Positions 31,422 through 59,227 of a stretch of DNA of 64,000 nucleotides are shown one piece after another. The position numbers were made by a program, and so were the translations under genes. The first letter of the stretch is position 1; the number at the start of each line of letters is the position of its first letter. The notes beneath the pieces are model-generated. The model had not been told where the DNA came from. It saw only the letters and a list, made by a program, of their open reading frames with translations, and ran no database searches. Source of the stretch: Brucella grignonensis (lineage in GTDB: Bacteria; Pseudomonadota; Alphaproteobacteria; Rhizobiales; Rhizobiaceae); assembly GCF_002252505.1 (NCBI RefSeq), contig NZ_NNRL01000159.1:186001-250000 (forward strand), in the 5' to 3' direction.

Positions 31422-31509
31422 AAGGATATAAAATATATGGACAACTTTGCGATGCCCGTATACTTTTTATTCTGACATGCATCCAACTGTCAAGTCTGGG
31501 GGAGACCTG
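31422..31509. promoter_or_regulatory. Divergent brxR/sbcD promoter region
   Basis: AT-rich in a GC-rich surrounding. Rightward, TGGACA (31438-31443) and TATACT (31459-31464) with a short 15-bp spacer are a plausible promoter, and GGGGGAGA precedes the sbcD ATG. A small inverted repeat ATATA-aaa-TATAT lies near 31425-31438. It is the likely site for BrxR binding. Confidence 0.5.
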
Positions 31510-32730: not shown

Positions 32731-32747
32731 AGCTGAGTTCTGATCCC

Positions 32748-40673: not shown

Positions 40674-41359
40674 TGGCTCATCTCCCGTGACCATGAGATT
40701 GCATTGATATAGATGCCGAGTGGATTGGCACGCAGACGCTCGGCATCACGCGGCGTCTGGATCACGATGGTCAGAATCGCTGTCCAGCGCTCTGTCGTGG
40801 ACAGCTGCCCATTCTCGTAGTGCCGCTCGGTCCAGGCGACGCGGAAGCTGTCGTTCGAGGCGCGGATGACGCTGGAAACCTCGACTGCGATCTGCTGACG
40901 CCCGACACGGGTGAACGGATCATTGGCGCGGGCATAGTCGTTGAGCGCGGCCGCTCCCCTGTCCGTGGTGAACTCATAGGCGCGCAGCCAGTTCTGGCGC
41001 ACGATGATGGCATCCGCTGGGATCGAGCGCGTCTGCTCGATGAAGCGGCCCAGATGAAAGGCGATCTGCGGATCGGTCGGGCGGTAATCGGCCGTGGCTG
41101 CGGCGACGGTCTGGGCCTGGCCGAGATTATCGACCTGCACCACCCAGGGCACGACGGTCCCTCGCGCCGATTGCAGCACAAGCGCGGCAGCGAAGCCCGC
41201 CGAGAGGATCAGCGAGCCGAAGGCCATATAGCGCCAGTTCTTGGCCTGCACGCGAGCCGAGCCGATGCGCTCGTCCCAGACTTGCGCGGCTTTCTGGTAA
41301 GGCGTCTCGGGTTCGGGCGATTTGCCGTAATGGGTCGCTGGACGTCTGAAGATGTTCAT
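40670..41359 (-). CDS. trbF: TrbF/VirB8, inner-membrane assembly protein
   Basis: 229 aa: one transmembrane helix (AFGSLILSAGFAAALVLQSA, about 45-65) and a periplasmic VirB8 domain (VVQVDNLGQAQTVAAATADY, FIEQTRSIPADAIIVRQNWL). VirB8 proteins nucleate the secretion complex. Overlaps both neighbours by 4 bp. Confidence 0.95.
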   Translation of the reverse strand: MNIFRRPATHYGKSPEPETPYQKAAQVWDERIGSARVQAKNWRYMAFGSLILSAGFAAALVLQSARGTVVPWVVQVDNLGQAQTVAAATADYRPTDPQIAFHLGRFIEQTRSIPADAIIVRQNWLRAYEFTTDRGAAALNDYARANDPFTRVGRQQIAVEVSSVIRASNDSFRVAWTERHYENGQLSTTERWTAILTIVIQTPRDAERLRANPLGIYINAISWSREMSQ

Positions 41360-42732: not shown

Positions 42733-42735
42733 GGT

Positions 42736-43023
42736 TCACTGTCCCCCGTTCTGATGCGGAGCGGCGGGCACCGGCGTCCGGCCGAGGAACCGGTCGCGGT
42801 TCTCGGCCCAGGTGGCGAGGCAGCCGGGATCGTTCACGGCGGCCTCGCCTAACTGCTGGCAGTGGCGCAGGCTCTGGCGCAGCGGATCGGCAGGCGCCTG
42901 AAGCGCCGGCGCCGGACGGGGCTGGGCTGGTTCGTCCTCGCGTGTCATTTCGATCACCGTCGCGGTGATGGCAATGGCCACGAATATGATCGCGCCCAGC
43001 CGCGCCAGCATCTTGCCGTCCAT
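42736..43023 (-). CDS. trbK: TrbK-alt, putative entry-exclusion protein
   Basis: 95 aa. An N-terminal membrane anchor (RLGAIIFVAIAITATVIEMT) is followed by a Pro/Ala linker and a short Cys-containing domain (LRQSLRHCQQLGEAAVNDPGC, LATWAENRDRFL with both Cys conserved). This is the TrbK-alt family found between trbJ and trbL. Thought to block redundant transfer into cells that already carry the element. Confidence 0.85.
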   Translation of the reverse strand: MDGKMLARLGAIIFVAIAITATVIEMTREDEPAQPRPAPALQAPADPLRQSLRHCQQLGEAAVNDPGCLATWAENRDRFLGRTPVPAAPHQNGGQ

Positions 43024-43043
43024 GTCGTGCCCCTCCTGTCCGA

Positions 43044-43826
43044 TCAGTTGTTGCCGTTGCCGAACATCCGGGCATTGCCAGGCTGATAGCCCGATCCCGG
43101 CGTCAGAAAGCGCTCGCGCTGGATGCGGCCCTGTTCGGCGGCGGTGGCACGCTCGGCCTCGATCAGGGCTTCGGAGCGACCATTGGCGGACATCAGCGCG
43201 ATAAGGTCGGAAAGCTGCTGCGACTGGAGCGCGAGAAGCTGATTGCCCGCCTGTGTCGCCTGCAACGCGCCGGTCGCGTTCTGGCTCTGCCCTACAAGGG
43301 CGGACATTTCAGCGCGGTTGGTGTCAATATTTCCGACGACACCGGCCTGCACGCGCATGGCGTCCTGCAAGCCGCCGACCGTATTCTGCCAGCGGGACCG
43401 CGCATCGGCGACGAGCTGGGCGTCGGTCGCGGACAGCAAAACCTTGCCGTATTTCTGCTGGAACATCTGATCGACGTTCTGCACGTCGAAGGCAATGTTC
43501 TGCGCCTGGGCCAGAAGCTGCTGCGTGCGCTGGACGTTCTGCTGCAAAGTCTGGAGCGAGGAATATGGCAGACTGGCGAGATTCTTCGCCTGATTGATCA
43601 GCATCTGCGCTTCATTCTGAAGAGAGGTGATCTGGTGGTTGATCTGCTCCAGCGTGCGGGCGGCGGTCAGAAGGTTCTGCGCATAATTGGTCGGATCGTA
43701 GACGATGCGACCGAAGCCAAAAGCGTGAGCGGGGCTTGTCAGCATGGGCGACAGGGCAACAGGCATGGCGAGCGCCAGTGCCAGCACGGATGCACTGACA
43801 TATCGGGAAACGGGGATACGGATCAT
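43044..43826 (-). CDS. trbJ: TrbJ/VirB5, minor pilus protein
   Basis: 260 aa with a cleavable signal peptide (ASVLALALAMPVALSPMLTS, PAHA) and then the TrbJ start IVYDPTNYAQNLLTAARTLE. The rest is a long Gln/Asn-rich coiled coil. VirB5-like proteins sit at the pilus tip and may contact recipients. Overlaps trbE by 4 bp. Confidence 0.93.
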   Translation of the reverse strand: MIRIPVSRYVSASVLALALAMPVALSPMLTSPAHAFGFGRIVYDPTNYAQNLLTAARTLEQINHQITSLQNEAQMLINQAKNLASLPYSSLQTLQQNVQRTQQLLAQAQNIAFDVQNVDQMFQQKYGKVLLSATDAQLVADARSRWQNTVGGLQDAMRVQAGVVGNIDTNRAEMSALVGQSQNATGALQATQAGNQLLALQSQQLSDLIALMSANGRSEALIEAERATAAEQGRIQRERFLTPGSGYQPGNARMFGNGNN

Positions 43827-46330
43827 GGCAGGGTCTCCTTTTCTTGGCTGTCATCTGGATGGATTTGATCTGGCGCGACCGGCACAGCGGGCTCAGTCCG
43901 TTCGACAAGATTGGTGAGGTTCGGGATCAGATCGACGGCCCATTCGACGCCTCGATCGCGCAGCCAGGCCGCGAGAAAGCCGTCCTGCCCATGCTCGGCG
44001 ACGAGTTCGGCGATACGGGTCTGATCGGATTTGGATGATGCGGCGCAGAGCGCGAGACCAACTTCGCTGAGGCCAAGCTCGAAAAGGCGATTGCCGCGCC
44101 GCGACTGGCAGTAGTAGTCCCGCTTGGGCGTGGCCCGCGCGAGGATCTCGATTTGCCGGTCATTAAGGCCGAAGCGGCGGTAGATTGCCGTGATCTGCGG
44201 CTCGATGGCGCGTTCGTTCGGCAGCAGCAGCCGCGTCGGGCAACTTTCGATGATGGCAGACGCGATATTGCTGCCATCGATGTCGGAAAGTGACTGCGTG
44301 GCGAAAATGACGGAAGCGTTCTTCTTCCTGAGCGTCTTCAGCCATTCGCGGAGCTGATTGGCGAAACCTTCGTCATCCAGCGCCAGCCAGCCTTCGTCGA
44401 TGATCAGCAGCGTTGGCCGCCCGTCGAGTCGGTCGCCAATGCGGTGAAACAGATAGGACAGGACGGCAGGCGCAGCCCCTGTGCCGACCAGCCCCTCGAT
44501 CTCGAAGGCCTGTACATCGGCTGATCCGAGATGTTCGGCCTCCGCATCGAGCAACCGGCCATAGGCGCCGCCAATGCAGTAAGGGCGCAGTGCTTGTTTC
44601 AGATCGTTGGATTGCAGCAGCACGGCGAGGCCGGTGATGGTCCGTTCCCCCGCCGGGGCGGATGCCAGCGAAGTCAGCGCCGTCCAGATGTGTTCCTTCA
44701 CCTCCGGCGTGATGGTCACGCCCTCGCGCATCAAGATTGCGGCGATCCAGTCGGCGGCCCAGGACCGCTCATAGGCGTCATCGATCCGCGCCAGCGGTTG
44801 CAGGGAAACGGACGCCTCGTCCCCTTCGGTCAGCCCACCGCCCAGATCATGCCAGTCGCCGCCCATGGCGAGCGCAGATGCCCTGATCGAGCCACCGAAA
44901 TCGAAAGCGAAGATCTGGCTGCGATCATAGCGACGAAACTGCAGCGCCATCAGCGCCAGCAGCACGGACTTGCCCGCGCCGGTCGGGCCGACGACAAGCG
45001 TATGGCCGACATCGCCGACATGAAGGGAAAGCCGGAACGGTGTCGAACCCTCGGTCTTGCCGTAAAGCAAGGGGGGCGCTCCGAGATGTTCGTTCCGTTC
45101 CGGCCCCGCCCACACGGCCGATAGCGGGATCATGTGGGCAAGGTTGAGCGTCGAGACCGGCGGCTGCCGGACGTTCGCGTAGGCGTGTCCGGGCAAGGAG
45201 CCGAGCCAGGCATCGACAGCATTGACGGTTTCCGGCATGGCCGTGAAATCGCGGCCCTGGATGATCTTCTCGACCAGCCGCAGTTTCTCGTCAGCGATGC
45301 GCGGGTTGGCATCCCAAACGGTGACGGTTGCGGTGACATAGGCCATGCCGGCCATGTCGGCGCCAAGTTCCTGCAGGGCCATGTCGGCGTCGAGCGCCTT
45401 GTTCGACGCATCCGTGTCCACCAACGCGGATTGCTCGTTGGTCATCACCTCTCTCAGGATCGCGGCGATGGACTTACGCTTGGCGAACCACTGGCGACGG
45501 ATCTTGGTCAGCAGCTTCGTGGCGTCCGTCTTGTCCATCAGGATCGCGCGGGTCGACCAGCGGTAGGGAAAGGCTAGCCGGTTCATATCGTCGAGAAGGC
45601 CGGGCGTCGTCGCGGTCGGGAAGCCTGTAATAGTCAGGATACGTAGATGCTGATCGCCAAGACGCGGCTCTAGCCCGCCGGTCAGCGGCTGATCGGCTAG
45701 CAGCGCGTCGAGATGCATCGGCACTTCCGGCACGCGCACGCGGTGGCGGTTGGTGGAAATCGTAGAGTGGAGATAGGTCAGCGTCGCGGCGTCATTGATC
45801 CAGTGGCATTCGGGCATGAAGCCATCGAGCAGGGCCAGCACGCGGTCGGTGCGGTCGATGAAGCCGCGCATCAGCTCCCATGGATTGACGCCGGATTGCT
45901 CACGGCCCTCATAGAGCCAGGTCTCGGCGCGAGCCGCATCTTCGGCGGGTGGCAGCCAGAGGAAGGTCAGGAAGTAGCCTGACACGAAATGCGTGCCCGC
46001 TTCCTCGAAGGCAGCTTTGCGCTCGGCATCGACCAGAGCGGAGGCCGGATCAGGAAATTGGCTGCCGGGATAGGTCGCGGCTTCGCTTCGTTGTGCCTCA
46101 ACAAAGATCGACCAGCCGGAGCCGAGGCGGCGCACGGCGTTGTTGATACGCCCGGCGACCGCGACTAGTTCGGCGGCAACAGCGGAATCCAGATCCGGCC
46201 CGCGAAACTTCGCAGTCCTCTGGAAACTGCCGTCCTTGTTCAGCACGACGCCCGAGCCAACCAGCGCGGCCCAGGGCAGGAAATCCGCGAGGTGGGTAGC
46301 GGTACGGCGATATTCGGTGAGGTTCATCAT
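43823..46330 (-). CDS. trbE: TrbE/VirB4, secretion ATPase
   Basis: 835 aa from ATG 46330 (MMNLTEYRRTATHLADFLPW), 10 bp after the trbD stop. A further 63 codons upstream lie inside trbD and are not used. Walker A VVGPTGAGKSVLLALMALQF, Walker B LLIIDEGWLAL, then FATQSLSDI. Drives pilus assembly and substrate transfer together with TrbB and TraG. Confidence 0.95.
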   Translation of the reverse strand: MMNLTEYRRTATHLADFLPWAALVGSGVVLNKDGSFQRTAKFRGPDLDSAVAAELVAVAGRINNAVRRLGSGWSIFVEAQRSEAATYPGSQFPDPASALVDAERKAAFEEAGTHFVSGYFLTFLWLPPAEDAARAETWLYEGREQSGVNPWELMRGFIDRTDRVLALLDGFMPECHWINDAATLTYLHSTISTNRHRVRVPEVPMHLDALLADQPLTGGLEPRLGDQHLRILTITGFPTATTPGLLDDMNRLAFPYRWSTRAILMDKTDATKLLTKIRRQWFAKRKSIAAILREVMTNEQSALVDTDASNKALDADMALQELGADMAGMAYVTATVTVWDANPRIADEKLRLVEKIIQGRDFTAMPETVNAVDAWLGSLPGHAYANVRQPPVSTLNLAHMIPLSAVWAGPERNEHLGAPPLLYGKTEGSTPFRLSLHVGDVGHTLVVGPTGAGKSVLLALMALQFRRYDRSQIFAFDFGGSIRASALAMGGDWHDLGGGLTEGDEASVSLQPLARIDDAYERSWAADWIAAILMREGVTITPEVKEHIWTALTSLASAPAGERTITGLAVLLQSNDLKQALRPYCIGGAYGRLLDAEAEHLGSADVQAFEIEGLVGTGAAPAVLSYLFHRIGDRLDGRPTLLIIDEGWLALDDEGFANQLREWLKTLRKKNASVIFATQSLSDIDGSNIASAIIESCPTRLLLPNERAIEPQITAIYRRFGLNDRQIEILARATPKRDYYCQSRRGNRLFELGLSEVGLALCAASSKSDQTRIAELVAEHGQDGFLAAWLRDRGVEWAVDLIPNLTNLVERTEPAVPVAPDQIHPDDSQEKETLP

Positions 46331-46340
46331 GGCTGCGCCC

Positions 46341-46622
46341 TCACACCGACAGATGACCGGGTATGCGCAGATGCCTACGGCCCACCTCGACAAAAAGCGG
46401 ATCGCGTTTGGCAGCCCATACCGCGAGGAAATGACCGACCGCCCAGATGGCGATGCCAACCAGCCAGAGACGAAGGCCGAGGCCGACGGCGCCGGCCAGT
46501 GTGCCGTTGACGATGGCAATCGAACGCGGTGCGCCGCCGAGCAGGATATGCTCGGTCAGCGCCCGGTGAACCGGGATGGAGAAGCCCGGCACCGCATCGA
46601 GCTGTTCAAACCCGCCCGCCAT
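46341..46622 (-). CDS. trbD: TrbD/VirB3, inner-membrane protein
   Basis: 93 aa from ATG 46622, overlapping the trbC stop. It begins GFSIPVHRALTEHILLGGAP, the VirB3/TrbD signature, and has one long or two short membrane helices (LAGAVGLGLRLWLVGIAIWA). The frame continues upstream through trbC but only this part is a gene. Works with TrbE. Confidence 0.93.
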   Translation of the reverse strand: MAGGFEQLDAVPGFSIPVHRALTEHILLGGAPRSIAIVNGTLAGAVGLGLRLWLVGIAIWAVGHFLAVWAAKRDPLFVEVGRRHLRIPGHLSV

Positions 46623-46954
46623 CAGATGAGCGCCCCGCCGCCGAACGAGAAGAACGACAGGAAGAAGCTCGACGCGGCGAAGGCGATGGACAGGCCGAAG
46701 ACGATCTGGATCAGGCGGCGGAAGCCGCCGGAGGTATCGCCGAAGGCCAGCGCCAGGCCGGTGGCGATGATGACGATGACGGCGATGATCTTGGCGACAG
46801 GACCCTCGATCGACTGGAGGATCGACTGAAGCGGGGCCTCCCAGGGCATGGAGGAGCCGGAGGCGTGTGCGGCAGGCGCCAGCATCAGACTGATGGAAAC
46901 AGTGGCAGCGGCGGTTGCCATGATGCGGCAGCCGCGTGAAATCGAGCGGATCAT
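46622..46954 (-). CDS. trbC: TrbC/VirB2, major pilin
   Basis: 110 aa. A long signal peptide (AAATVSISLMLAPAAHA) is followed by a small pilin with two hydrophobic helices (AKIIAVIVIIATGLALAFGD and LIQIVFGLSIAFAASSFFLS) around a Gly-rich turn, the VirB2 layout. Overlaps trbB by 4 bp. Confidence 0.94.
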   Translation of the reverse strand: MIRSISRGCRIMATAAATVSISLMLAPAAHASGSSMPWEAPLQSILQSIEGPVAKIIAVIVIIATGLALAFGDTSGGFRRLIQIVFGLSIAFAASSFFLSFFSFGGGALI

Positions 46955-47958
46955 GAAGGGTTTCCTTTCGGGGTGGTTGCCAAAGTACTGGGATGCGTGA
47001 TGGCGTAGTCACCGTCCGGACCCAGCCCATCGACGCGGGCGAGTTCGACCAGGCGGCGGGACGATCCACGTCCGGCAAGAACAGCGACAAGGTCGATGGT
47101 TTCGGCGATCAGGGCGCGCGGGACGGTGATGACGGCTTCCTGGATGAGCTGTTCGAGGCGTCGCAGCGCGCCAATGCCGGAACCGGCATGGATGGTGCCG
47201 ATTCCGCCCGGATGGCCGGTACCCCATGCTTTGAGCAGATCGAGGGCTTCGGACCCGCGCACCTCCCCGACCGGGATGCGATCAGGACGCAGGCGCAGCG
47301 AGGAGCGCACCAGATCGGAGAGCGTCGCCACGCCATCCTTGGTGCGCATGGCGACGAGATTAGGCGCGGCGCATTGCAGTTCGCGCGTGTCTTCAATGAT
47401 CACGACGCGATCCGAAGTCTTGGCGACTTCTGCCAGCAGCGCGTTGGTCAGCGTGGTCTTGCCAGTGGAGGTGCCGCCCGCGACGAGGATATTGGCCCGC
47501 GTGGCGACGTTCAGGCGCAACACCTCGGCCTGAGGGCTGGTCATGATCCCGGCGTTTACATAGTCGTCGAGCGTGAACACCGCGACGGCGGGCTTGCGGA
47601 TGGCAAAGGTCGGCGCCGTGACAACAGGCGGCAGCAACCCTTCGAAGCGCTCTCCGGTCTCAGGCAGTTCGGCCGATACACGCGGACTTCGGGTATGAAC
47701 TTCGACGCCAACATGATGGGCGACCAACCGGACGATCCGCTCGCCATCAGCCGCAGACAGCCTCTCCCCCGTATTGGCCAGACCTTCGGAGAGCCGATCC
47801 ACCCAGATGCGGCCATCGGGGTTCAGCATCACCTCGACGACAGCCGGATCTTCCAGAAACCGGGCAATCGATGCCCCGAGTGCGGTGCGCAGCATCCGCG
47901 CACCACGCGCAATCGTCTCGGGTTTCTGATGTGATGCGGTCATGGCGGCCCCGTTCAT
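46951..47958 (-). CDS. trbB: TrbB/VirB11, hexameric traffic ATPase
   Basis: 335 aa. Walker [19 protein letters not shown], Asp box IEDTRELQ, Walker [18 protein letters not shown] and the His box [12 protein letters not shown], all VirB11 marks. First gene of the trb operon; a weak tra-box-like palindrome and a hairpin lie upstream. An ATG five codons downstream (MTASHQ) is an equally good start. Confidence 0.95.
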
Positions 47959-47978
47959 GGCGGGACGCGCAAAAGACG

Positions 47979-48051
47979 GACCCCGGATTGGGGTCGATTA
48001 AAAGAACCTGATTTAGGGCCGTTTCAACAGATGTTTGTGCGCATGCGGGCA
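47979..48051 (-). promoter_or_regulatory. Upstream region of trb operon with palindromes
   Basis: Two structures. TGTGCGCATGCGGGCA at 48036-48051 has half-sites matching 6 of 8 and resembles the TraR box core (TGTGCAGATCTGCACA). The perfect hairpin GACCCC-ggatt-GGGGTC spans 47979-47994 and could attenuate. In related ICEs trb operons are under TraR quorum control, but no traR is in this window. Confidence 0.35.
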
Positions 48052-48089
48052 TCGGCGGCTGACGGCGGCAAATCGGATGGATCGAACGT

Positions 48090-48551
48090 TCAGGGCTGGT
48101 TTCCATCGGCTTCAGCCTGGCGTTGCGCCGAATGATCGTGGGGCGTATCCACATCCCGTGATAGTTCTTTCAGGAACCTGTCGCCAGTTGCAAGACGCCT
48201 GCCCAGCGTCTGCATGAAGCCTTCGAAGCGCTCGTTGCCCTTGATGCGTGCCGACTGTTTCGCGCTGTCTGACAGCGGCGGCGTCATGGTGAGCCAGAAT
48301 TGTACGAACAGCGAAAGCGTCTCGCCGAGGATGGCGACATCTTCGTCCAGCATGTCGAACTGGCGGCCAAGCTTGTCCAGGCGTCGCGACATTGCGGCTT
48401 CCAGCCGTTCGGTCGTGTCACCGGACAGGAAGGATGCGACCGCCGCCTCGATCACTGCGGATTTGGAAACATTGCGGCGCAGCGCCAGGCCTTCGACCTG
48501 CTTCAGCAGATCCGGGGAGAAGTAGACGTTCATGCGGGTGCGGCTCGTCAT
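48090..48551 (-). CDS. CopG/ribbon-helix-helix protein between traG and trbB
   Basis: 153 aa from ATG 48551, chosen because GAAGGAAGA precedes it; a start 18 bp earlier would overlap traG. The N-terminus is a ribbon-helix-helix (RMNVYFSPDLLKQVEGLALR, RNVSKSAVIEAAVASFL), followed by a helical region. Proteins of this type sit between traG and trbB in many alphaproteobacterial ICEs and may regulate transfer or help the relaxosome. Confidence 0.85.
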   Translation of the reverse strand: MTSRTRMNVYFSPDLLKQVEGLALRRNVSKSAVIEAAVASFLSGDTTERLEAAMSRRLDKLGRQFDMLDEDVAILGETLSLFVQFWLTMTPPLSDSAKQSARIKGNERFEGFMQTLGRRLATGDRFLKELSRDVDTPHDHSAQRQAEADGNQP

Positions 48552-48565
48552 GCCTGTCTTCCTTC

Positions 48566-50554
48566 TCAAAGGTCGATGCCGTCATTGGGGTCGAGAGATG
48601 CCTGCCGCGCGACCATGCGCATCCGCTGACGCATGGCGCGGGCCTTGGCGGCATCGACGTCGGGCTCATCATCGAGAAAGTCGAACTCCTGCGATGGCGG
48701 CGGTGGTGCCGGGATGATTTCCTCATGCTCGGGAAGCTCCGGCTCACGACGGATACCGGCATTGGCAGGATCGCCGTCGGACGTGTTCGACGCGGGTCCG
48801 TGGCCAACCGTGGGCGTAACAACACGGCTCGTCCAGTCGTCTGGTGCCGATGTTTCCATCTTCACCGACTGCTTGCGTAGATCGGGCGGCGGCAGCACCC
48901 GTTCCTGAAGCCGCGCATCGGCATAGTAGCGCGCCTTGGCGGCGCGGATGGGCGGCACACCCGCTACCATGACGATCTCGTCGGTTGGCGGAAGCTGCAT
49001 GATTTCGCCCGGTGTCAGGAGTGGCCGCGCCGTTTCCTGCCGCGACACCATAAGGTGCCCCAGCCATGGCGCGAGGCGATGGCCCGCATAGTTGGTGGAA
49101 TCGCGCATTTCCGTGGCCGTGCCGAGCGCGTCACTGATCCGTTTGGCGGTGCGTTCATCGTTGGCAGCAAAGGCGACACGCACATGGCAGTTGTCGAGAA
49201 TGGCGTTGTTCTGCCCATAGGCGCGCTCGATCTGGTTGAGCGACTGCGCGATCAGGAACGCTTTGAGGCCGTAGCCGGCCATGAAGGCGAGCGCCGATTC
49301 AAAGAAATCAAGCCGCCCGAGCGCGGGGAACTCGTCCAGCATCAACAGGAGACGATGGCGTTTTCCGGTGGTTTCCAGTTCCTCGGTCAGCCGCCGCCCG
49401 ACCTGATTGAGGATCAGACGGATCAGCGGCTTGGTCCGGTTGATGTCCGAGGGCGGTACGACGAGGTAGAGGCTGACCGGTTCTTTTGCTCCGACCAGAT
49501 CAGCAATGCGCCAGTCGCAGCGGGCCGTCACGCGGGCCACGACCGGATCTCGGTAGAGACCGAGAAAGGACATCGCCGTGGACAGCACGCCGGAGCGTTC
49601 GTTCTCGGACTTGTTAAGCAGTTCGCGTGCCGATGAGGCGATGACGGGATGCACACCGGCTTCGCCCAGATGCGGCGTGTCCATCATGGCGCGCAAGGTC
49701 GCCTCGACCGGACGGCGCGGATCGGACAGAAAGCTCGCGACCCCCGCCAGCGTCTTGTCCTTCTCGGCATAGAGAACATGCAGGATGGCGCCGACCAGTA
49801 GCGAATGGCTGGTCTTTTCCCAATGGTTGCGCTTGTCGAGACTGCCCTCGGGATCGACCAGAATATCCGCGATGTTCTGGACATCGCGGACTTCCCACTC
49901 CCCCTGACGGACTTCCAGCAGCGGGTTGTAAGCTGCGGAATGCACATTGGTCGGATCGAACAGCAGGACGCGGCCGTGATGGGACCGGAAGCCGGCCGTC
50001 AGATTCCAGTTCTCCCCCTTGATGTCGTGCACGATGCAACTTCCCGGCCAGGTCAGCAGCGTCGGCACAACGAGACCGACGCCTTTGCCTGATCGGGTGG
50101 GCGCGAAACAAAGGACATGCTCGGGGCCGTCGTGCCGGAGATAGTCCTTGCTGTGCCTGCCAAGGACCACGTCATCGGGACCGAGCAGTCCGGCAGCATG
50201 GATTTCCTTGTCCTCGGCCCATCGCGCAGAACCGTAGGTGGCGACGTTGCGCGCCTCGCGCGCCCGGATGATCGACATGAAAAAAGCGGCGGCGATAGCG
50301 AACAACGCCCCGGACGTGGCGATGAACGCGCCCTCGGTGAAAATACCGGGCGCATAGGCGTCATAGGAAAACCACCACCAGAAGAAGGCCGGAGGATAAT
50401 AGACCGGCCATCCCGCAACATCGAACCATGGATTGCCGAGCTGGGGCTGAAAGCCAAGGCGGAAGGCCACCCATTGTGTCGAAGTCCAGACCATCACCAG
50501 GACAATGGTGAATACGACAATGATCTGGCCCCAGAGTATTCGGCCACCACGCAT
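48566..50554 (-). CDS. traG: TraG/VirD4, type IV coupling protein
   Basis: 662 aa from ATG 50554; a start six codons earlier (50572) is possible. Two membrane helices (IIVVFTIVLVMVWTSTQWVA; GALFAIAAAFFMSI), then Walker A APTRSGKGVGLVVPTLL, Walker B LLLMLDEFPALGRL and the conserved FLIAQSLNQIERAYG. Links the relaxase-DNA complex to the Trb channel. The acidic, Pro-rich C-terminus is variable. Confidence 0.95.
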   Translation of the reverse strand: MRGGRILWGQIIVVFTIVLVMVWTSTQWVAFRLGFQPQLGNPWFDVAGWPVYYPPAFFWWWFSYDAYAPGIFTEGAFIATSGALFAIAAAFFMSIIRAREARNVATYGSARWAEDKEIHAAGLLGPDDVVLGRHSKDYLRHDGPEHVLCFAPTRSGKGVGLVVPTLLTWPGSCIVHDIKGENWNLTAGFRSHHGRVLLFDPTNVHSAAYNPLLEVRQGEWEVRDVQNIADILVDPEGSLDKRNHWEKTSHSLLVGAILHVLYAEKDKTLAGVASFLSDPRRPVEATLRAMMDTPHLGEAGVHPVIASSARELLNKSENERSGVLSTAMSFLGLYRDPVVARVTARCDWRIADLVGAKEPVSLYLVVPPSDINRTKPLIRLILNQVGRRLTEELETTGKRHRLLLMLDEFPALGRLDFFESALAFMAGYGLKAFLIAQSLNQIERAYGQNNAILDNCHVRVAFAANDERTAKRISDALGTATEMRDSTNYAGHRLAPWLGHLMVSRQETARPLLTPGEIMQLPPTDEIVMVAGVPPIRAAKARYYADARLQERVLPPPDLRKQSVKMETSAPDDWTSRVVTPTVGHGPASNTSDGDPANAGIRREPELPEHEEIIPAPPPPSQEFDFLDDEPDVDAAKARAMRQRMRMVARQASLDPNDGIDL

Positions 50555-50729
50555 ACAGGCTCCAATCGGCAAGAGAGTCGGAGCCGATCAAAGAATAGAC
50601 GTTTTCGAAAGCGGCAACAGGAAAAGCAGGGATGCCGTGTTGCCGGATACTATCGGCGGCACATCGGACAGGCCCTTTCAGATGCCGATGTCGACAGAAC
50701 AATTTGCGAGGTGCCAGATCGGCAAAGGC

Positions 50730-52802
50730 TCAAATCCCGAGCCCTCGTGTTCGCCCCATTTGCCACGATACCGATCCACCCTGCACGATGCCCGCAACCT
50801 CGCGGCCGAGCTGGCGGTCGATCACTGGCCGCCATGGGACAAGAGTGAACTCGTGGCTCTTTTCGACAATGGCGAACTTGCCGCTCGATAGATGTGCGAT
50901 CCCGGTGAACTTGCCGCTGATATTTTCGCCATCGGCAGCCGCCCGGAACGGCAAGCCTTTGCTGCTGGCCATTTCCGCACCGACGCGGGCCACTTCCCTT
51001 TCTCGCAGATTGGCGAGCAGGTTGCGCCGATAGAGGATGCGTCCATTCTGCTGCCGCGTGGCATCGCCCTGTGCGATATGGTGTTCACGCCGCTGGTCCA
51101 TAGCCTCGCGCACCTGCTGGCCGAACCCTGCCGGGGTAAGGTCCGAGGCGTCCGGTGTGACCAATCGCCGGTCCAGCCAGGTCGCGCCATCGGCGCCGAT
51201 CTGTTTTTCCAGATCGAAGGTCGAGACGACACGGATGCTGGCCTGCCGGTTGCGACCGGCATCATAGGCGGTGGCGCGGCTCTCGAAGTCTTCGGGGATG
51301 CGCCACTGGTCGGCGTCGATCCGCTCGGCAATCCCGGCCCGGCGTAGCGACTCCAATCGCCGGACATGGGCATCGACATAGCCCTCATAATCGCCACCCG
51401 GCACACGTCCCTCGAACTTCGCCTGTTCGAGGTGGCGGCTCGGTCGGTAGATACCATTTTCCGAGATCGCAGCGATGGTGCGATCAGAGGGACGTTGTGC
51501 TGTATCGGCGGGACCGACTTCCACGATGCTGCCGATCCGGGCATCTTCGACGCGGGCCGGATCAATGCCGGGAAGATGGTGTGTTCGCCCGTCGATGCCG
51601 TCCACCACGAGCGTCAGGTTCTCGCCCATCTCGTCGGCGAGATATTTGTCCACGACGCGGCCGGTGATGGGCGCCGCGGGTGCGGCATCGTGAAGCTGGA
51701 AGGTCATCGGATCACGTTCCTGCCCATCGACCTTCAGCGCCTCTTGCAAGTTACGGATGATGTCGCCGCGCTCGCCGAGTTCACGCAGCGCCGGTTCCAT
51801 CTTCGCGCCAAGCTCCCAGACGCCGGGTGCATGTTCCGTAGCCAGCCCCATCTTTTCCAGCTTGGCGAGACGGCGCAGGCGAAGTGTGCGGTTGAACTGG
51901 CGGCGTGCATCTGCCGGTTCGTGGCGCAGATCGAGGAACCTTTCGTCGGCTTCCTCGGTCATGGCGCGATCGATGCGCGTGAAGCGGTCCTGATCGATTT
52001 CGGCAGACAGCTTGCGGCTCTGCTCGATCTCGGTCACGGGGCCGAGTTCCAGCGTGGTCAGTTCGCTCGCCCGCTCACGAATACCATTGGCGAGATAGTC
52101 GCCATTGATAACCAGGTTCTCGCCCAGATCGTCCTTCCCCCGAACAATGACATGGACATGGGGATGGCCGGTATTGTGGTGATTGACCGCCACCCAATCG
52201 AGTTTCGTGCCAAGGTCGGCCTCGATGCGGCTCATCAGATCGCGGGTGTGTTCGGTGAGGTCGGAAAGATCGGCGGCATCTTCTGGCGAAACGATAAAGC
52301 GGAACTGGTGGCGATCGTCCTTGCCGCGATCAAGGAAGGCATCTCCATCGGCGCGGTCCTCCGTGGCGGAATAGAGCTGGCCACGTTCGCCATCGCGCGA
52401 GGTGCCGTCGCGCTGGATGTAGCGCAGATGGGCGGTCCCTTTGCCGCTCTTCCCCGCGCTCTGGACGTACCGGGTTTTGACGACGACGCGGCGCACTCCG
52501 GCTGCGCTGTGACGCCACCCGCCCGACAGGGTTCGGGCGCGGACATAGGCCGCGCCACGGCCACGCTTGACGCCCGGACCTTTGCTCGCCCGCGATGCCT
52601 TCCCGCTCTTTCCGGCCGAACCAGATGAAGACGACGAGGAAGTCCGTGATGCGAATGATGATGATCGACCGGGACCGTTGCTATGCTGACGCGCCAGCTT
52701 TTTTGCCTGCGTCAGAAAGCTCTTGGCTTTGCCCGCTTTCGGCACGTCGAATTTGATCCGGCCCGGCCTGGGGCGAAAGCGGTTCTCGTCGTCGGCGCTC
52801 AT
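50730..52802 (-). CDS. rlxS: DUF3363 relaxase/mobilisation nuclease (RlxS-like)
   Basis: 690 aa. Basic N-terminus rich in Ser/Arg/Lys, then the nuclease domain with DWVAVNHHNTGHPHVHVIVRG (the HxH metal site near 205-215) and INGDYLANGIRERASELTT, LELGP. The C-terminal half is DUF3363 (FEGRVPGGDYEGYVDAHVRR…GATWLDRRLVT). Homologous RlxS is the conjugative relaxase of ICEMlSym. A non-coding GC-rich stretch directly upstream is the natural place for oriT. Confidence 0.92.
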   Translation of the reverse strand: MSADDENRFRPRPGRIKFDVPKAGKAKSFLTQAKKLARQHSNGPGRSSSFASRTSSSSSSGSAGKSGKASRASKGPGVKRGRGAAYVRARTLSGGWRHSAAGVRRVVVKTRYVQSAGKSGKGTAHLRYIQRDGTSRDGERGQLYSATEDRADGDAFLDRGKDDRHQFRFIVSPEDAADLSDLTEHTRDLMSRIEADLGTKLDWVAVNHHNTGHPHVHVIVRGKDDLGENLVINGDYLANGIRERASELTTLELGPVTEIEQSRKLSAEIDQDRFTRIDRAMTEEADERFLDLRHEPADARRQFNRTLRLRRLAKLEKMGLATEHAPGVWELGAKMEPALRELGERGDIIRNLQEALKVDGQERDPMTFQLHDAAPAAPITGRVVDKYLADEMGENLTLVVDGIDGRTHHLPGIDPARVEDARIGSIVEVGPADTAQRPSDRTIAAISENGIYRPSRHLEQAKFEGRVPGGDYEGYVDAHVRRLESLRRAGIAERIDADQWRIPEDFESRATAYDAGRNRQASIRVVSTFDLEKQIGADGATWLDRRLVTPDASDLTPAGFGQQVREAMDQRREHHIAQGDATRQQNGRILYRRNLLANLREREVARVGAEMASSKGLPFRAAADGENISGKFTGIAHLSSGKFAIVEKSHEFTLVPWRPVIDRQLGREVAGIVQGGSVSWQMGRTRGLGI

Positions 52803-54189: not shown

Positions 54190-54735
54190 TCAATGCGTGA
54201 CCGCCCGCCATTCGTAGCGGCCATCGCCTTCCTCATCGGTCCAGAGCGGAAGCGCCCGGCCGATGACGGAACTGGCGGGAACAGGTCCGAAGTAACGGCC
54301 GTCGAGGCTGTCCCGGATTTCCCAATTCATGAGGAAGAGTTCGCCGTCGCGGATGATGCGGCAGCCCTGCCAGACCGGCAGATCGCGTCCCATCCGGTCG
54401 CGCTCCAGTGCATCGCCCATCTCGACGTTATCGACGGTGATCGTCGCACCGCTGCGACAGACGCGCTGTCCCGGCAAGCCGAGGACGCGTTTCAGCAGCG
54501 GCACGCCCCGCCCGATATAGCCGCGCTCGACCATGAACCGCTCCAGCGGTTCGGGCGGCGCGATGACGACGAGTTCAGGAACTTCGACCACATCGGCAGG
54601 AACAACTGTGTAGAAGCCGATGGGCGCGCTGGCGGTCGCATTCCAGATCAGCCTGGTTGGCGGATCGGCAACGGCCGTGGCGACAAGCGTACCGACGGCC
54701 AACATGGACACGGCGAGGATATGACGGCGGCTCAT
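54190..54735 (-). CDS. traF: TraF, S26-family signal peptidase
   Basis: 181 aa from ATG 54735. N-terminal membrane helix (AVSMLAVGTLVATAVA), catalytic Ser in ATASAPIGFYTV and catalytic Lys in PLLKRVLGLPGQRVC. TraF enzymes cyclise or mature the TrbC pilin in RP4-type systems. Overlaps the DUF2840 gene by 4 bp. Confidence 0.93.
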   Translation of the reverse strand: MSRRHILAVSMLAVGTLVATAVADPPTRLIWNATASAPIGFYTVVPADVVEVPELVVIAPPEPLERFMVERGYIGRGVPLLKRVLGLPGQRVCRSGATITVDNVEMGDALERDRMGRDLPVWQGCRIIRDGELFLMNWEIRDSLDGRYFGPVPASSVIGRALPLWTDEEGDGRYEWRAVTH

Positions 54736-55250
54736 GGTGCGATCCTCCGGCGGCTGACCCATGCGGCATGGCGTTCCGGCGTGTAGGGGTTGGGGTCCTG
54801 ACCGGCGATCATGCGGTTGTGGACGTGCCGCCAATGGTCCGGCGCAGCATCCGCAGGATCGACGCCAAGCGCGTCCACGGCGTCGATGGCGGCCAGCGCT
54901 TGCTGCACCTTTGGCCAGCCATCAATACGCAGCAGGATCTCGCCGCCGGGGCGAACGAAGGGCACGGTCTGGAACGGCTCGCCACGCCCGACAGCGCGCA
55001 GTATGTCGAGCCGCGAGACGATGGTGCCGTAGTCGTTGGAGGCCCAGCGGACGAAGGCGAAGATGCTTTCGGGTGCGAAGCCGACGAGACTGCGGCGGCG
55101 GTCGATGATCTGCTCAAAGCTCTTGTGGCCGAAGCGTATCCAGTGCTCAACCTTCCGCTTCTGGAAGGCCAGTTCGACAAGTGTGGTGAAGGGCGCTGGA
55201 CCGTCCGCCAGCGGATGTTCATGCGCACCACGCCCGGTTTTGCCGGTCAT
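54732..55250 (-). CDS. DUF2840 protein
   Basis: 172 aa. TTLVELAFQKRKVEHWIRFG, FAFVRWASNDYGTIVSRLDI, LRAV, PFVRPGGEILLRIDGWPKVQ is the DUF2840 family, found only between traF and parA in elements like this. Function unknown; its place in an overlapping chain suggests a structural or maturation role in transfer. Overlaps both neighbours. Confidence 0.9.
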   Translation of the reverse strand: MTGKTGRGAHEHPLADGPAPFTTLVELAFQKRKVEHWIRFGHKSFEQIIDRRRSLVGFAPESIFAFVRWASNDYGTIVSRLDILRAVGRGEPFQTVPFVRPGGEILLRIDGWPKVQQALAAIDAVDALGVDPADAAPDHWRHVHNRMIAGQDPNPYTPERHAAWVSRRRIAP

Positions 55251-55501
55251 GGCCGGTCTCCTTCGGTGGGTGGAAACTCGCGGCCCAGCAGCTCGCGCAG
55301 CATCACGGCGACGGTGACGCCGCGCCGGAAAGCGGCCACCTTGATGCGCCCGCGCAGTTCGGGTGTGATGTCGATGGTCAGGCGGGCGGTAAACGCCTCG
55401 GCAGCCATCTTTCCGGTTGCCGGCGCATCGGCGGCCCTGACCCAGCTATCGGGATTACCCGGACGCGATGCGAAGCCGGATTTGGCGGGTGGACGTGTCA
55501 T
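55247..55501 (-). CDS. Ribbon-helix-helix protein, likely ParA partner
   Basis: 84 aa. The C-terminal 50 residues read FTARLTIDITPELRGRIKVA, AFRRGVTVAVMLRELLGREF, a ribbon-helix-helix DNA-binding fold; the N-terminus is disordered. It overlaps the parA stop by 4 bp, so it is probably the centromere-binding partner or autorepressor of ParA (ParG/ParB-like role). Confidence 0.85.
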   Translation of the reverse strand: MTRPPAKSGFASRPGNPDSWVRAADAPATGKMAAEAFTARLTIDITPELRGRIKVAAFRRGVTVAVMLRELLGREFPPTEGDRP

Positions 55502-56151
55502 CGCACAATCCTCCCGATCCCGAGGCTATCGATCTCGGCCACCAGCGCTGTGACCTCCTGTGCAGCCCGTTCGCCGCCATCGGTCTCTGAGACCAGTCGC
55601 CCAGTTTGTGCGGCTTCAGCAAAGGCGACGCGCTGGCCGATGGTCGTGGCCAGCAACGGCGGATCTTGGTCCGCCAGTGTCTCAGCCGTTTCGCGGGCGA
55701 TGACGGTGCGCGCAGCGCATCGGTTCAGCAGAAAACGGGCGGCCAGTTCAGGACGATAGATGCGTGCTTCGTTCAGAAGCGCCAGCATCTCGGCGGAGGC
55801 CCAGCCGTCGAAAGGAGATGGCTGCACCGGGACCAGCACCAGATCGGCTGCAAGCAGCGCTGAGCGCATCAGACCAGCGACACGGGGCGGACCATCGATG
55901 ACGACATGGTCGGCGTCACGCGCCAGCTCCGGCGCTTCCCGGTGCAGCGTATCGCGGGCCAGGCCGATGACACTGAACAGCCTTGGCAGCCCTTCATGGC
56001 CACGCCGCTGCGACCAGTCGAGTGCGGAGCCTTGCGGATCGGCGTCGATCAGGATGACGCGTTTGCCTTCCGCAGCCCACGCACCGGCGAGATGCAGCGC
56101 CAACGTGGTTTTTCCGACACCGCCTTTCTGATTGAGGAGAGCGACGATCAT
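55498..56151 (-). CDS. parA: ParA-family partition ATPase
   Basis: 217 aa. Deviant Walker A LNQKGGVGKTTLALHLAGAW, then VILIDADPQGSALDWSQRR and VVIDGPPRVAGLM. A small ParA, as on plasmids and ICEs. Overlaps repA by 4 bp and the ribbon-helix-helix gene by 4 bp. Helps keep the excised, replicating form in daughter cells. Confidence 0.95.
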   Translation of the reverse strand: MIVALLNQKGGVGKTTLALHLAGAWAAEGKRVILIDADPQGSALDWSQRRGHEGLPRLFSVIGLARDTLHREAPELARDADHVVIDGPPRVAGLMRSALLAADLVLVPVQPSPFDGWASAEMLALLNEARIYRPELAARFLLNRCAARTVIARETAETLADQDPPLLATTIGQRVAFAEAAQTGRLVSETDGGERAAQEVTALVAEIDSLGIGRIVR

Positions 56152-57293
56152 CGCTGTCCTCCCGGCTTGCCGAGAGGAAGTTCAGGCGTGCTTGTTGACG
56201 CGGGCGATCCTTGCTTTGGGGGTGTCAGCTTGCCTTTATGGGCACCCGATCTGAGGGCCGCACCAGCCTTCGCGATGAGCTTTTCCACATCGCGCCGCCG
56301 CTCTTCAAAGTTAGATTCTGTGTTAGACTTTAAGTTAAGGGCGCGATTTTCGCTTTTGTTACCGAAGGATAGGAGGTGTTTGGGTTCCCGATAGCACGAG
56401 CCTCCGGTTCCTGATGGCACGATAGTCCGGGTTCCCGATAGCACGAGACTATCCACAGGTTTTCCACAGGCCGGGACAGGCTCGAAAGCGAGCAGCATCC
56501 GGCCGCCGGTTTCGACCTCGGCGAACAGGGTGTAGCCGGGCAGTGGCTGGCGGCGGATAATGTCGCGCAGCTCGAAGGCGAAGCGCTTGAACGGCGACAG
56601 ACTGCCCGATTTCTGGTGCAGGTGACGGAAGTCGAACCGCCAACCGTTTTTCTGTCGCCCACCATGCTTGCGCACCAGGCGATAGAGCCAGCGATCCAAC
56701 CCGCCGGTCAGATTGAAATAGGCCCGGTCGATGGTGAGGATCAGGGCGTCATCCAGAACCGCACTGTAGAACCAGTCGGGCACGATCATCTCGATGCCGT
56801 CCGGACGGCCATTGGCATCGGTCCGCTCGTGCCATTCGTTGATCCACGAAAAACGATGTCGCCGTCCATTCGCGCGCTGGCGGATCGAGGTTGCAACCGT
56901 GGTCGATTGCAGCCGGTCCAGCGCCGCCTTCAGGCGCTGATAGTCCCTCAGGGAGGTTCCGCGCCCTGTGAATGTCAGGATTTCATAAGGCGTTGCCGCC
57001 ATCAGGCGCGACGTGCGCAGACCGGCGTCCCGCGCTTCCACGATCTGGCTGGCCGCCCAGATCAGTATATCGGCGTCCCAGATCGTCGCCATACCGTGAT
57101 CGGGAACAGCTTCGACACGGATCGAGACGTTGCCCAAGGCAAAGTCAATCGGGCGGCTACGGTGCGATTTGGAAAGGGAAAAGAAAGGATAGGCCATGAG
57201 ATCCTGCGCGTCTCGTGGTGCGAATTCCCCGGGAAGCGCCCGAAACAGATCGAGTTGCCCGCGTTCCGAGGCGGATGGGTGCTGCGCTGCCAT
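56148..57293 (-). CDS. repA: RepA-type replication initiator
   Basis: 381 aa from ATG 57293, chosen because it lies just after the rdfS stop; 53 upstream codons lie inside rdfS. Typical stretches are YPFFSLSKSHRSRPIDFALG, VSIRVEAVPDHGMATIWDAD, YFNLTGGLDRWLYRLVRKHG and KSGSLSPFKRFAFELRDIIR, which mark the replication initiator protein A family with two winged-helix domains. The last fifth is variable and contains three repeats (LVLSGTRT, IVPSGTG, SCYREP) encoded by iteron-like DNA. It would allow autonomous replication of the excised ICE. Confidence 0.92.
   Translation of the reverse strand: MAAQHPSASERGQLDLFRALPGEFAPRDAQDLMAYPFFSLSKSHRSRPIDFALGNVSIRVEAVPDHGMATIWDADILIWAASQIVEARDAGLRTSRLMAATPYEILTFTGRGTSLRDYQRLKAALDRLQSTTVATSIRQRANGRRHRFSWINEWHERTDANGRPDGIEMIVPDWFYSAVLDDALILTIDRAYFNLTGGLDRWLYRLVRKHGGRQKNGWRFDFRHLHQKSGSLSPFKRFAFELRDIIRRQPLPGYTLFAEVETGGRMLLAFEPVPACGKPVDSLVLSGTRTIVPSGTGGSCYREPKHLLSFGNKSENRALNLKSNTESNFEERRRDVEKLIAKAGAALRSGAHKGKLTPPKQGSPASTSTPELPLGKPGGQR
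56382..56468. repeat. Three iterons plus two DnaA-box-like sites inside repA
   Basis: GGGTTCCCGATAGCACGAG occurs at 56382-56400 and identically at 56429-56447, with a close variant (CGGTTCCTGATGGCACGAT) at 56405-56423. Spacing is 23 and 24 bp, about two helix turns. Directly beside them lie CTATCCACA (56449-56457) and TTTTCCACA (56460-56468), each 8 of 9 bases to the DnaA box TTATCCACA. This is a candidate replication origin within the initiator gene. Confidence 0.65.
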
Positions 57294-57312: not shown

Positions 57313-57594
57313 TCAGCGCGTGATGCGCTTGGGCGAGGTGAATGCGGTCGGCGGCATAGGTTTCGCCGGGAGAACTTGTCCGCGTGGGTCCGACGTGGAG
57401 GTAACCGATCCGCGCGCAACCCAGGCTGCGAGATCCTCGACCGAATAGACAACGCGGCCGCCGAGCTTGTGATAGGCAGGTCCCGTTCCGTAGGTTCTGT
57501 GCTTTTCCAGCGTGCGCGCGGACAGGCTGAGGAAATCGGCGGCTTCCTTGGTGCGCAGGTAGCGTGGCGGCAAGGCGGCGAGATCAGGTCGCAT
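57313..57594 (-). CDS. rdfS: RdfS-like excisionase (MerR/AlpA-type HTH)
   Basis: 93 aa from ATG 57594 with GGAGG at good spacing. LRTKEAADFLSLSARTLEKH, RTYGTGPAYHKLGGRVVYS, VEDLAAWVARG is the AlpA/HTH_17 winged helix of recombination directionality factors. In ICEMlSym, RdfS steers the integrase to excision, lies directly before the rep/parA/transfer genes and is activated by FseA. The same order is seen here. Confidence 0.85.
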   Translation of the reverse strand: MRPDLAALPPRYLRTKEAADFLSLSARTLEKHRTYGTGPAYHKLGGRVVYSVEDLAAWVARGSVTSTSDPRGQVLPAKPMPPTAFTSPKRITR

Positions 57595-57642: not shown

Positions 57643-57730
57643 GACATGCGCACGGTGGCGAAGGCGCGGCGGCATAGGGGATGAGGAAGATCGAAGGGGT
57701 AGAATCCTCACCCTCGATCAGACGTCAGTG

Positions 57731-58496
57731 TCAGGGTTTGCGACGATGGCGCAAAAGGTCCTGATAACCGCCGTCGATCACCGCGGCGGCAGATCGGACA
57801 AGGGCGATGACAGAGGCGCGCAAAGCCGATGTCTTCCACGGTTCGGCCCGAACGCGCGCCTCTCCGTAGATGGCGATGGCAATCTCACGATAAGTCGCGT
57901 GGTTGGCGTTTCCGTCGGCGGCTTGCATCATCAGGCGGAACCGCCGGCGCTGATACGGCGTCATCCTGGGGTCGCGGCGCGCGGGTTTCCCGGCCAGCAT
58001 GTGCCAGAGCCTGAGAATGGCTTCGAGCCGATCCGGCAGATTTTGGTCAAGTGGCAGGATGATCGCCGGCTGCGAATTGGCATCGGTGTCGGCGAGGATC
58101 AGATATTGAACGCCGTCGCTGACGTCACAGACACCATATGTCCCCTCTGGTCCGCAGATGGCATCAGCAAAATCGACCGATAAGGCGGACGGAGAAGGCG
58201 GAAGAAAATCGGGCGCTGCCCCGAGCATCAGCATGTCCGGATTGGCAACAGGCGACCAGATGACCGGTTGGTCGAGCGCGGAAAAGCCGGGGTCTGCCGG
58301 GAAATCGCAACCCCCAGCGATTTTGGACGTCATCCGCAAGGGGAAGATGCCCGGCGCCTTGCGCTACAAGGTCATCGAAACAGGCCTGATAGGACGCGTT
58401 ACGGCGCAGGCATTCCCAGGCGACACCCTCAACGGGCAGCGCATCGTAGAATTCATACTGGTCCTGGTCTCGCCAGCGGGATGTATCCGGCTTCAT
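57731..58496 (-). CDS. fseA: FseA-like excision activator made by +1 frameshift (DUF6499 + DUF2285)
   Basis: Two frames overlap. Frame 1 starts at ATG 58496 (AGGAG upstream) with MKPDTSRWRDQDQYEFYDAL…WECLRRNASYQACFDDLV, a DUF6499 domain, and reaches LRF at residue 65. Frame 2 then continues PADPGFSALDQPVIWSPVAN and the DUF2285 domain (PYQRRRFRLMMQAADG…YGEARVRAE…IDGGYQDLLRHRR) to the stop at 57731. The join falls exactly on the Phe codon in TTTC, giving a 254-aa protein. Without slippage frame 1 yields 110 aa ending at 58164. FseA of ICEMlSym is made this way and switches on rdfS. Confidence 0.85.
58301..58304 (-). promoter_or_regulatory. Slip site UUUC of programmed +1 frameshift
   Basis: In the mRNA the zero frame reads CGA-UUU-CCC-GGC. 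If tRNA-Phe slips one base from UUU to UUC, reading continues CCG-GCA-GAC and enters the DUF2285 frame. Phe is codon 65 of the first frame and codon 13 of the second. The same UUU-to-UUC slip was shown for msi172-msi171 of ICEMlSym R7A. Confidence 0.8.
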
Positions 58497-58960: not shown

Positions 58961-59227
58961 TCAGGCGTCACGGATCTGTCGGTATCTCTTCTCGTCTTGG
59001 TCATGAACCAGCAATACTCCTTGCCCGCGATCCGTGGACAGGAGAACAATCCCTGCTGCTTCAAGCGCCCGGCGCACCTGATCCCGCGTTGTCTCATACA
59101 CCTCGAGCCGGTTCTCGGACTCAAGGCGTTTCAGGGCAGTCAGCGATATTCGGGCCTTGTCAGCGAGCGTCTCCTGCGTCCAACCCAGCAACGCGCGTGC
59201 GGCCCGCGACTGTCGAGCGGTGATCAT
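58961..59227 (-). CDS. XRE/C-protein-like regulator (QseC-like)
   Basis: 88 aa. Helix-turn-helix QSRAARALLGWTQETLADKA, RISLTALKRLESENR, then a small dimerisation tail (VRRALEAAGIVLLSTDRGQG). Size and position fit QseC, the controller-protein-like repressor that sets the level of qseM in ICEMlSym. There qseC and qseM are divergent; here they are in line, 60 bp apart. The ribosome site and start codon lie in a perfect palindrome, suggesting autoregulation. XRE proteins are common, so the role is inferred from context. Confidence 0.75.
   Translation of the reverse strand: MITARQSRAARALLGWTQETLADKARISLTALKRLESENRLEVYETTRDQVRRALEAAGIVLLSTDRGQGVLLVHDQDEKRYRQIRDA

What the first reader, a model, noticed from the sequence alone, without database searches (positions are those of the whole stretch)
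57731..58496. FseA-type excision activator encoded across a programmed +1 frameshift
The two frames are each intact, overlap, and meet exactly at a Phe codon in the context UUU-C (Phe65 of frame 1 = Phe13 of frame 2). The fused product reads LRF-PADPGFSALDQPVIW. ICEMlSym R7A makes FseA by the same UUU-to-UUC slip. With rdfS, a QseM-like and an XRE gene beside it, the complete excision switch appears conserved in an ICE that carries phage defence instead of symbiosis genes.
Basis: partly seen in the sequence, partly recalled or inferred. Interest (0 to 1): 0.88.

Follow-up and report, generated by a model that had tools for sequence, protein, structure and literature searches.

The report
Conjugation switch gene using ribosomal frameshift
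This is a regulator gene of a conjugative DNA element that ribosomes must read by slipping one base forward at a UUU-C site; it is a clear new example of an already described family (FseA), and its slip site is conserved almost letter by letter in distant relatives.

Summary
Frame 1 (58496-58164, minus) carries PF20109 (DUF6499) up to Phe65; frame 2 (58363-57731, minus) carries PF10074 (DUF2285); they meet at TTTC, giving 254 aa. All 23 close relatives found are split at the same place, and substitutions change phase there. Of 178 family loci, 172 have both halves: 134 in the +1 frame, 36 fused, 2 other. In 130 motif-bearing +1 loci the Phe codon is always TTT, followed by C (116) or T (14). 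Neighbours match the R7A module: QseM homologue (7uqt, 1e-19), RdfS homologue (8dgl, 2e-7), RlxS-type relaxase, trb genes, and an inverted repeat like the FseA box before rdfS. Jowsey 2023 already counts 4709 homologues, about 61% with this +1 site: a new member of a known kind. What I add: flanking codons are selected at the nucleotide level (TGG GGG TTG CGA TTT Y); CGA is 80 of 86 Arg codons there, 272 of 2963 elsewhere. Not shown: integrase, att sites, TraR input, or frameshifting itself. The module also sits on plasmids, so 'ICE' is unproved.

The parts
58302..58496 (-). FseA N-terminal half, DUF6499 / PF20109, frame 1 up to the slip Phe (frame 1 runs on to its stop at 58164)
58301..58316 (-). 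slip cassette TGG GGG TTG CGA TTT C: SD-like UGGGGG (58316-58311), UUG (58310-58308), CGA (58307-58305), slippery UUU-C (58304-58301)
57731..58303 (-). FseA middle and C-terminal part, DUF2285 / PF10074, +1 frame, from the TTC of the slip site to the stop (frame open back to 58363)
57682..57710 (-). candidate FseA box: TGAGGA (57710-57705), 17 bases, TCCTCA (57687-57682), between fseA and rdfS
   Evidence: covariation of the inner bases in the 20 of 61 loci that fit the pattern
57313..57594 (-). RdfS-like HTH protein, 93 aa (ATG 57594)
   Evidence: PDB 8dgl RdfS, E 1.6e-7; PF12728
58625..58900 (-). QseM-like antiactivator, lone DUF2285, 91 aa
   Evidence: PDB 7uqt QseM, E 1.3e-19; PF10074 28.1 bits (cut-off 26.4)
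58961..59227 (-). XRE-type HTH protein, 88 aa, QseC-like by position only
   Evidence: PF01381 24.9 bits (cut-off 23)
56148..57293 (-). replication initiator protein A, starting 19 bases after rdfS, same strand
55498..56151 (-). ParA-type ATPase
54190..54834 (-). TraF-type S26 peptidase
50730..52802 (-). RlxS-type relaxase (DUF3363)
   Evidence: 665.5 bits, below NCBI's own cut-off of 850
38530..50572 (-). TrbI, TrbG/CagX, TrbL, TrbE, TrbB and TraG type genes of the conjugation apparatus
   Evidence: 6 of the ORFs here were scanned

Best explanation
The two frames encode one protein of the FseA family. A ribosome reading frame 1 reaches UUU in its P site; tRNA-Phe (anticodon GAA) re-pairs one base forward on UUC, and translation goes on in the DUF2285 frame, giving a 254-aa two-domain activator; ribosomes that do not slip end 45 codons later with a DUF6499 peptide, presumably inactive. 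The joined protein then binds the inverted repeat before rdfS and switches on rdfS and the genes behind it (repA, parA, traF, relaxase by position), while the QseM-like protein holds it back by imitating its DUF2285 domain. Shown here: the two halves, the join, its conservation, the neighbours, the inverted repeat. Inferred from the R7A work: slipping itself, DNA binding, QseM antagonism, excision or transfer as the outcome. The bases around the slip site (SD-like UGGGGG, UUG, CGA) most likely raise the slip rate (inference from codon selection).
For: Pfam halves end and begin at the join. 134 of 172 two-domain loci have DUF2285 in the +1 frame, 36 fused, 2 other. TTT in 130 of 130 motif-bearing +1 loci, against 155 of 530 Phe codons elsewhere in the same genes; next base C 116, T 14, never A or G. 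GGG 95 of 130 (elsewhere 170 of 1187 Gly codons; 5 of 26 fused genes with WG); TTG 81 of 130 (elsewhere 250 of 2133 Leu codons); CGA 80 of 86 Arg (elsewhere 272 of 2963); after thinning at 70% identity 37 of 42, against 6 of 131 for the Arg pair of the AWExLRR motif in the same genes. Phase change at the slip. QseM and RdfS homologues. XRE, QseM-like and both FseA frames in 23 of 23 close relatives; RdfS, RPA and HipA in 22, ParA in 21, the gaps being in two short contigs, L007 and L022.
Against: No protein or reporter data. The 36 fused genes score lower in the profile than nearly all split ones, so fused-versus-split is confounded with ancestry. 46 of 91 thinned loci do without CGA and 27 of 91 without GGG. 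I had no R7A FseA sequence to align. The published logo puts the near hexamer 62-67 bases before the rdfS start with a 15-16 base spacer; here 88-93 and 17. Without a pattern, the best repeat in the window's stretch is another one (GATCGAGG/CTTCGATC) and is reached by 18 of 100 shuffles.
Confidence: 0.9

Rival explanations
1. Same gene and product, but the frame is chosen one codon earlier: with CGA (weak inosine-adenine pair, recalled) in the P site, 3 nt after the SD-like UGGGGG, an incoming tRNA-Phe reads UUC in the +1 frame directly, as discussed for yeast Ty3, without slipping on UUU. This would leave the rest of the best explanation standing, so its odds overlap with it.
For: UGGGGG-UUG-CGA has the spacing that AGGGGG-3 nt-CTTT has in prfB (PMC12421855, passages); CGA strongly selected; CGA is among the few codons that can replace the P-site codon of Ty3 (PMC5009743, passages).
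Against: The skipped first U is invariant in 130 of 130, also in the 46 of 91 thinned loci without CGA, which only the UUU slip needs. The R7A abstract (recalled, not read) reports slippage of tRNA-Phe from UUU to UUC.
Confidence: 0.07
2. The slip is made by tRNA-Pro on CCC to CCG right after the Phe; for this window the protein would be identical.
For: TTT CCC G in the window; 35 of 91 thinned loci have CC after TTT.
Against: 56 of 91 have other bases there, with TTT still invariant.
Confidence: 0.02
3. Two separate proteins: frame 2 is started internally and makes a lone DUF2285 protein.
For: TTG 58339 and ATG 58333 exist in frame 2.
Against: 36 of 91 thinned loci have no ATG, GTG or TTG in the +1 frame upstream of the slip, and no one start codon at one distance is shared by more than 6; the phase change and slip codons would be unexplained.
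Confidence: 0.02
4. Sequencing error or a decayed gene.
For: None found.
Against: 23 of 23 close relatives and 3 of 3 plasmid records read share the split; codon-phase selection on both sides.
Confidence: 0.005

Closest known systems
FseA (Msi172-Msi171) of ICEMlSym R7A, Mesorhizobium japonicum
   Same: DUF6499 + DUF2285 in two overlapping frames, a +1 programmed frameshift, rdfS target with inverted repeat, QseM homologue beside it (PMC10359603 passages and section 18; PMC5882170 and PMC11963761 passages). The UUU-to-UUC detail is recalled from the 2015 abstract
   Different: Here the order is XRE, qseM-like, fseA, rdfS, repA, parA on one strand and no LuxR-type gene was found on the contig; in R7A traR, traI2, msi172-171 and qseM-qseC lie together and rdfS heads traF, msi107, rlxS (passages)
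FseA homologues surveyed by Jowsey 2023 (4709, about 61% split)
   Same: same family and site, including the SD-like UGGGGG over WGL
   Different: no difference in kind; selection on the CGA and TTG codons is not in the passages I read
prfB (release factor 2) +1 frameshift
   Same: SD-like GGGGG, +1 slip of a P-site tRNA on a pyrimidine run (PMC12421855, passages)
   Different: prfB slips at CUU-U before a stop, 3 nt after the SD-like run; here UUU-Y lies 6 nt after it and no stop follows

Membership tests
FseA | N-terminal DUF6499 (PF20109) with AWEFLRRN-like helix | tested here: met
   67.8 bits; the window reads AWECLRRN, Cys being the commonest residue at that place in +1 loci (39 of 134)
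FseA | C-terminal DUF2285 (PF10074) | tested here: met
   117.6 bits over the full model
FseA | conserved +1 site UUU-C after a WGL motif over UGGGGG | tested here: met
FseA | inverted repeat (FseA box) before rdfS | tested here: met
   38 of 40 inner positions complementary in the 20 of 61 loci that fit a strict pattern, 16.0 expected on shuffling; the other 41 do not fit it; position and spacer differ from the published logo
FseA | frameshift product made and activating rdfS | not testable with these tools
   needs bench work
QseM | lone DUF2285 homologous to QseM, no DUF6499 | tested here: met
   E 1.3e-19 to 7uqt
QseM | binds FseA and blocks it | not testable with these tools
   needs bench work
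RdfS | small winged-HTH RDF homologous to RdfS | tested here: met
   E 1.6e-7 to 8dgl
ICE | own integrase and att sites | tested here: inconclusive
   on this contig tyrosine-integrase matches only at 271163 (reads by eye as IntI1) and 7566; serine integrases not searched; around 270.0-274.5 kb only repeats of 16 and 15 bases; contig ends at 286632
ICEMlSym-type quorum control | TraR and TraI on the element | tested here: inconclusive
   3 LuxR-type genes in the genome, none on this contig; no LuxI found but its controls were silent too; element ends unknown

The most novel reading that the evidence does not exclude
The fseA slip site is a three-part +1 signal in bacteria: an SD-like UGGGGG placed, as in prfB, 3 nt before a codon chosen to be CGA, followed by slippery UUU-Y; the weak CGA pair (P site, then E site) is an active stimulator and could even set the frame as in Ty3. 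On elements like this one, with no TraR found on the contig and with repA and parA right behind rdfS, the slip would gate replication and transfer, not only excision.
Probability: 0.35. Interest if true: 0.5.

Novelty: new member of a known kind. Interest (0 to 1): 0.34.

Why it matters
It shows one transfer switch, slip site included, moving with little change (81-96% protein identity in the best segment) among alphaproteobacteria of several orders, here with BREX cargo. The codon-level selection gives a directly testable claim about what makes a bacterial +1 site other than prfB work.

Tried and rejected
Unconstrained search for the inverted repeat in single sequences had no power: nearly all best scores were matched by shuffles, the window's too (another repeat, 18 of 100 shuffles). 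A loose pattern gave 28 of 46 paired inner positions against 14.1 expected (0 of 5000 shuffles as high) and misplaced the window's right arm; I replaced it by a strict spacer, which fits only 20 of 61 loci, so 41 loci are not covered by that test; the 61 are a thinned set of the 87 of 134 +1 loci with an rdfS-like motif, the window being kept beside its near copy L003. Promoter scan found nothing (0 sites, shuffles 0.8; sigma-70 type only); inverted repeats upstream gave two pairs of unclear meaning. Att search, tRNAs and a 16S primer pattern gave nothing useful. PDB search with frame 2 alone gave no hit at 0.01. NCBIfam had no match for the fseA frames, qseM-like or rdfS-like genes. The 2015 PNAS paper on FseA is not held; what I say of its abstract is recalled. 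That CGA selection may be undescribed rests only on passages of PMC10359603 and on searches, so it may well be in the 2015 paper.

Sampling: 178 loci = window + 23 + those and regions. Five listed places were not taken: two in G052 with the same score and open length as one taken, and three weak ones (G532, G519:C10, G494:C2:991935). Loci of the window's own genome (L001, L002, L068) were dropped as duplicates. 4 of 134 +1 loci lacked the WGxxF pattern and are not in the codon counts.

Full report
Observation. On the minus strand, frame 1 runs from ATG 58496 to a stop at 58164 and frame 2 is open from 58363 to a stop at 57731. TTT 58304-58302 of frame 1 overlaps TTC 58303-58301 of frame 2. Frame 1 matches PF20109 over model positions 1-59 of 60, ending on that Phe; frame 2 matches PF10074 over its whole length. 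In the window's genome PF10074 has two matches, this gene and the QseM-like gene beside it.

Is it real? A scan of 84,980 species genomes with six peptide patterns gave 23 close relatives (81-96% identity in the best segment), from Haematobacter, Sphingomonas, Gemmobacter, Kaistia, Roseibium, Pannonibacter, Salipiger, Rhizobium, Sphingobium, Pseudochrobactrum, Mesorhizobium, Thioclava, Nitratireductor, Rhodopseudomonas, Paracoccus, Amaricoccus and several MAGs. All 23 are split at the same place: TTTC in 21, TTTT in 2 (L018, L020). Among 22 unique sequences (window included) the variable columns sit mostly at frame-0 third positions before the slip (34 of 60, against 19 and 11) and at +1-frame third positions after it (28 of 49, against 14 and 13). 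So selection acts on one protein that changes frame at this site.

Wider family. Further loci were found by protein profile, not by DNA pattern: 45 of 151 genomes drawn from the host's family, 43 of 398 from its phylum and 25 of 385 from its class have PF20109. Of 178 loci, 172 have DUF2285 behind it: 134 in the +1 frame, 36 in frame, 2 in the third frame (L060, L143); in 6 it was not found. In 130 of the 134 a WGxxF motif marks the slip. Its Phe codon is TTT in 130 of 130 although TTC prevails elsewhere in these genes (375 of 530), and the following base is C (116) or T (14), so tRNA-Phe can re-pair in every case. In two of the 14 (L054, L120) a TTTC follows one codon later, so their slip codon is uncertain.

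Codons around the slip. Gly is GGG in 95 of 130 (elsewhere 170 of 1187), Leu TTG in 81 of 130 (elsewhere 250 of 2133 Leu codons), and where the residue before Phe is Arg (86 of 130) the codon is CGA in 80 (elsewhere 272 of 2963). After thinning to 91 loci below 85% identity CGA is 45 of 51 Arg codons, and to 76 loci below 70% it is 37 of 42, while the two Arg codons of the nearby AWExLRR motif in the same 76 genes are CGA in 6 of 131. In fused genes with WG (26 of 36) GGG is found in 5. This argues for selection on the RNA and not shared descent alone; but the fused genes are distant, and 46 of 91 thinned loci do without CGA. The SD-like run was noted by Jowsey 2023 (PMC10359603, passages); I have not seen the CGA and TTG bias described, but the 2015 paper could not be read.

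Mechanism. The UUU slip fits all of this best. A Ty3-like out-of-frame reading with CGA in the P site has the right prfB-like spacing (PMC12421855, passages; PMC5009743, passages) but does not explain why the skipped U never varies. A Pro slip on CCC is possible in only part of the loci (35 of 91). Internal starts are not conserved.

Module. QseM-like 58900-58625 matches the solved QseM, RdfS-like 57594-57313 the solved RdfS, the relaxase the RlxS model, below its cut-off. The XRE gene 59227-58961 is only QseC-like by position. Between fseA and rdfS lies TGAGGA-N17-TCCTCA; in the 20 of 61 thinned loci that fit the strict pattern the inner two bases co-vary (AG/CT 6, TC/GA 6, GG/CC 5, GC/GC 1, and GC/AC 2, half paired), 38 of 40 complementary against 16.0 expected, 0 of 10000 shuffles as high. 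Single-sequence searches without a pattern could not show it. The Jowsey logo (section read) places the near hexamer 62-67 bases before rdfS with a 15-16 base spacer; here it is 88-93 and 17, which may reflect how arms and starts are drawn. Gene order is kept in the close relatives. repA starts 19 bases after rdfS, so the box may drive replication and partition genes too (inference).

Element. trb and TraG type genes and a BREX set, BrxA, BrxB, BrxC, PglX, PglZ, BrxL at 17.6-30.5 kb, share the window. The module also lies on circular plasmids: Sphingopyxis indica pMC4 (96.1%), Haematobacter massiliensis pOT1-2 (94.0%), and in diverged form Sphingobium indicum pCHQ1, where the DUF6499 half is not in the listed annotation. 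No tyrosine integrase that looks like its own was found on the contig, and the narrow att search gave nothing, so whether this copy is integrated is open. No LuxR-type gene was found on the contig, so what switches fseA on here is unknown; the XRE gene is the nearest candidate (inference).

Host. A 559-aa RpoB piece is 95% identical to that of the Pseudochrobactrum genome and 88% to the next of 9 named genomes searched (a tenth was not held). The genus was not determined.

Verdict. A sound, well-read finding, and an ordinary member of a described family. The part worth pursuing is the codon-level make-up of the slip site.

Noticed in passing
window 17647-30501: Type I BREX-like set (BrxL, PglZ, PglX, BrxC, BrxB, BrxA) with a WYL-domain gene at 30498-31421, on the conjugative element.
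   Followed up: partly
window 11770-14979: A UvrD-type helicase seems spread over two adjacent ORFs: PF00580 positions 8-202 in one (13936-14979) and 213-262 at the start of the next (11770-13932); beside a PD-(D/E)XK nuclease (14976-17522). Described only, not joined.
   Followed up: no
window 31447-36458: SbcD-like phosphoesterase and SMC/SbcC-like ATPase pair next to BREX, with a weak LmuB match.
   Followed up: no
window 59547-61086: HipB/HipA-like pair divergent from the switch; HipA kept next to it in 22 of 23 close relatives.
   Followed up: partly
L182:12714-14625: DUF6088/AbiEi-like antitoxin followed by one ORF holding both an AbiEii and a TnsA-like N-terminal domain, perhaps a fusion of two genes.
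   Followed up: no
L183:2332-9767: Reads by eye as a class 1 integron integrase (PF00589 match) next to tni-type transposition genes, about 27 kb from fseA.
   Followed up: no
L060, L143: Two family loci with DUF2285 in neither the same nor the +1 frame; decay, assembly error or a second shift.
   Followed up: no
L018, L020, L041, L043, L047, L048, L054, L064, L073, L098, L112, L119, L120, L134: TTTT instead of TTTC at the motif (14 of 130), where tRNA-Phe would slip UUU to UUU; in L054 and L120 a TTTC follows one codon later.
   Followed up: partly
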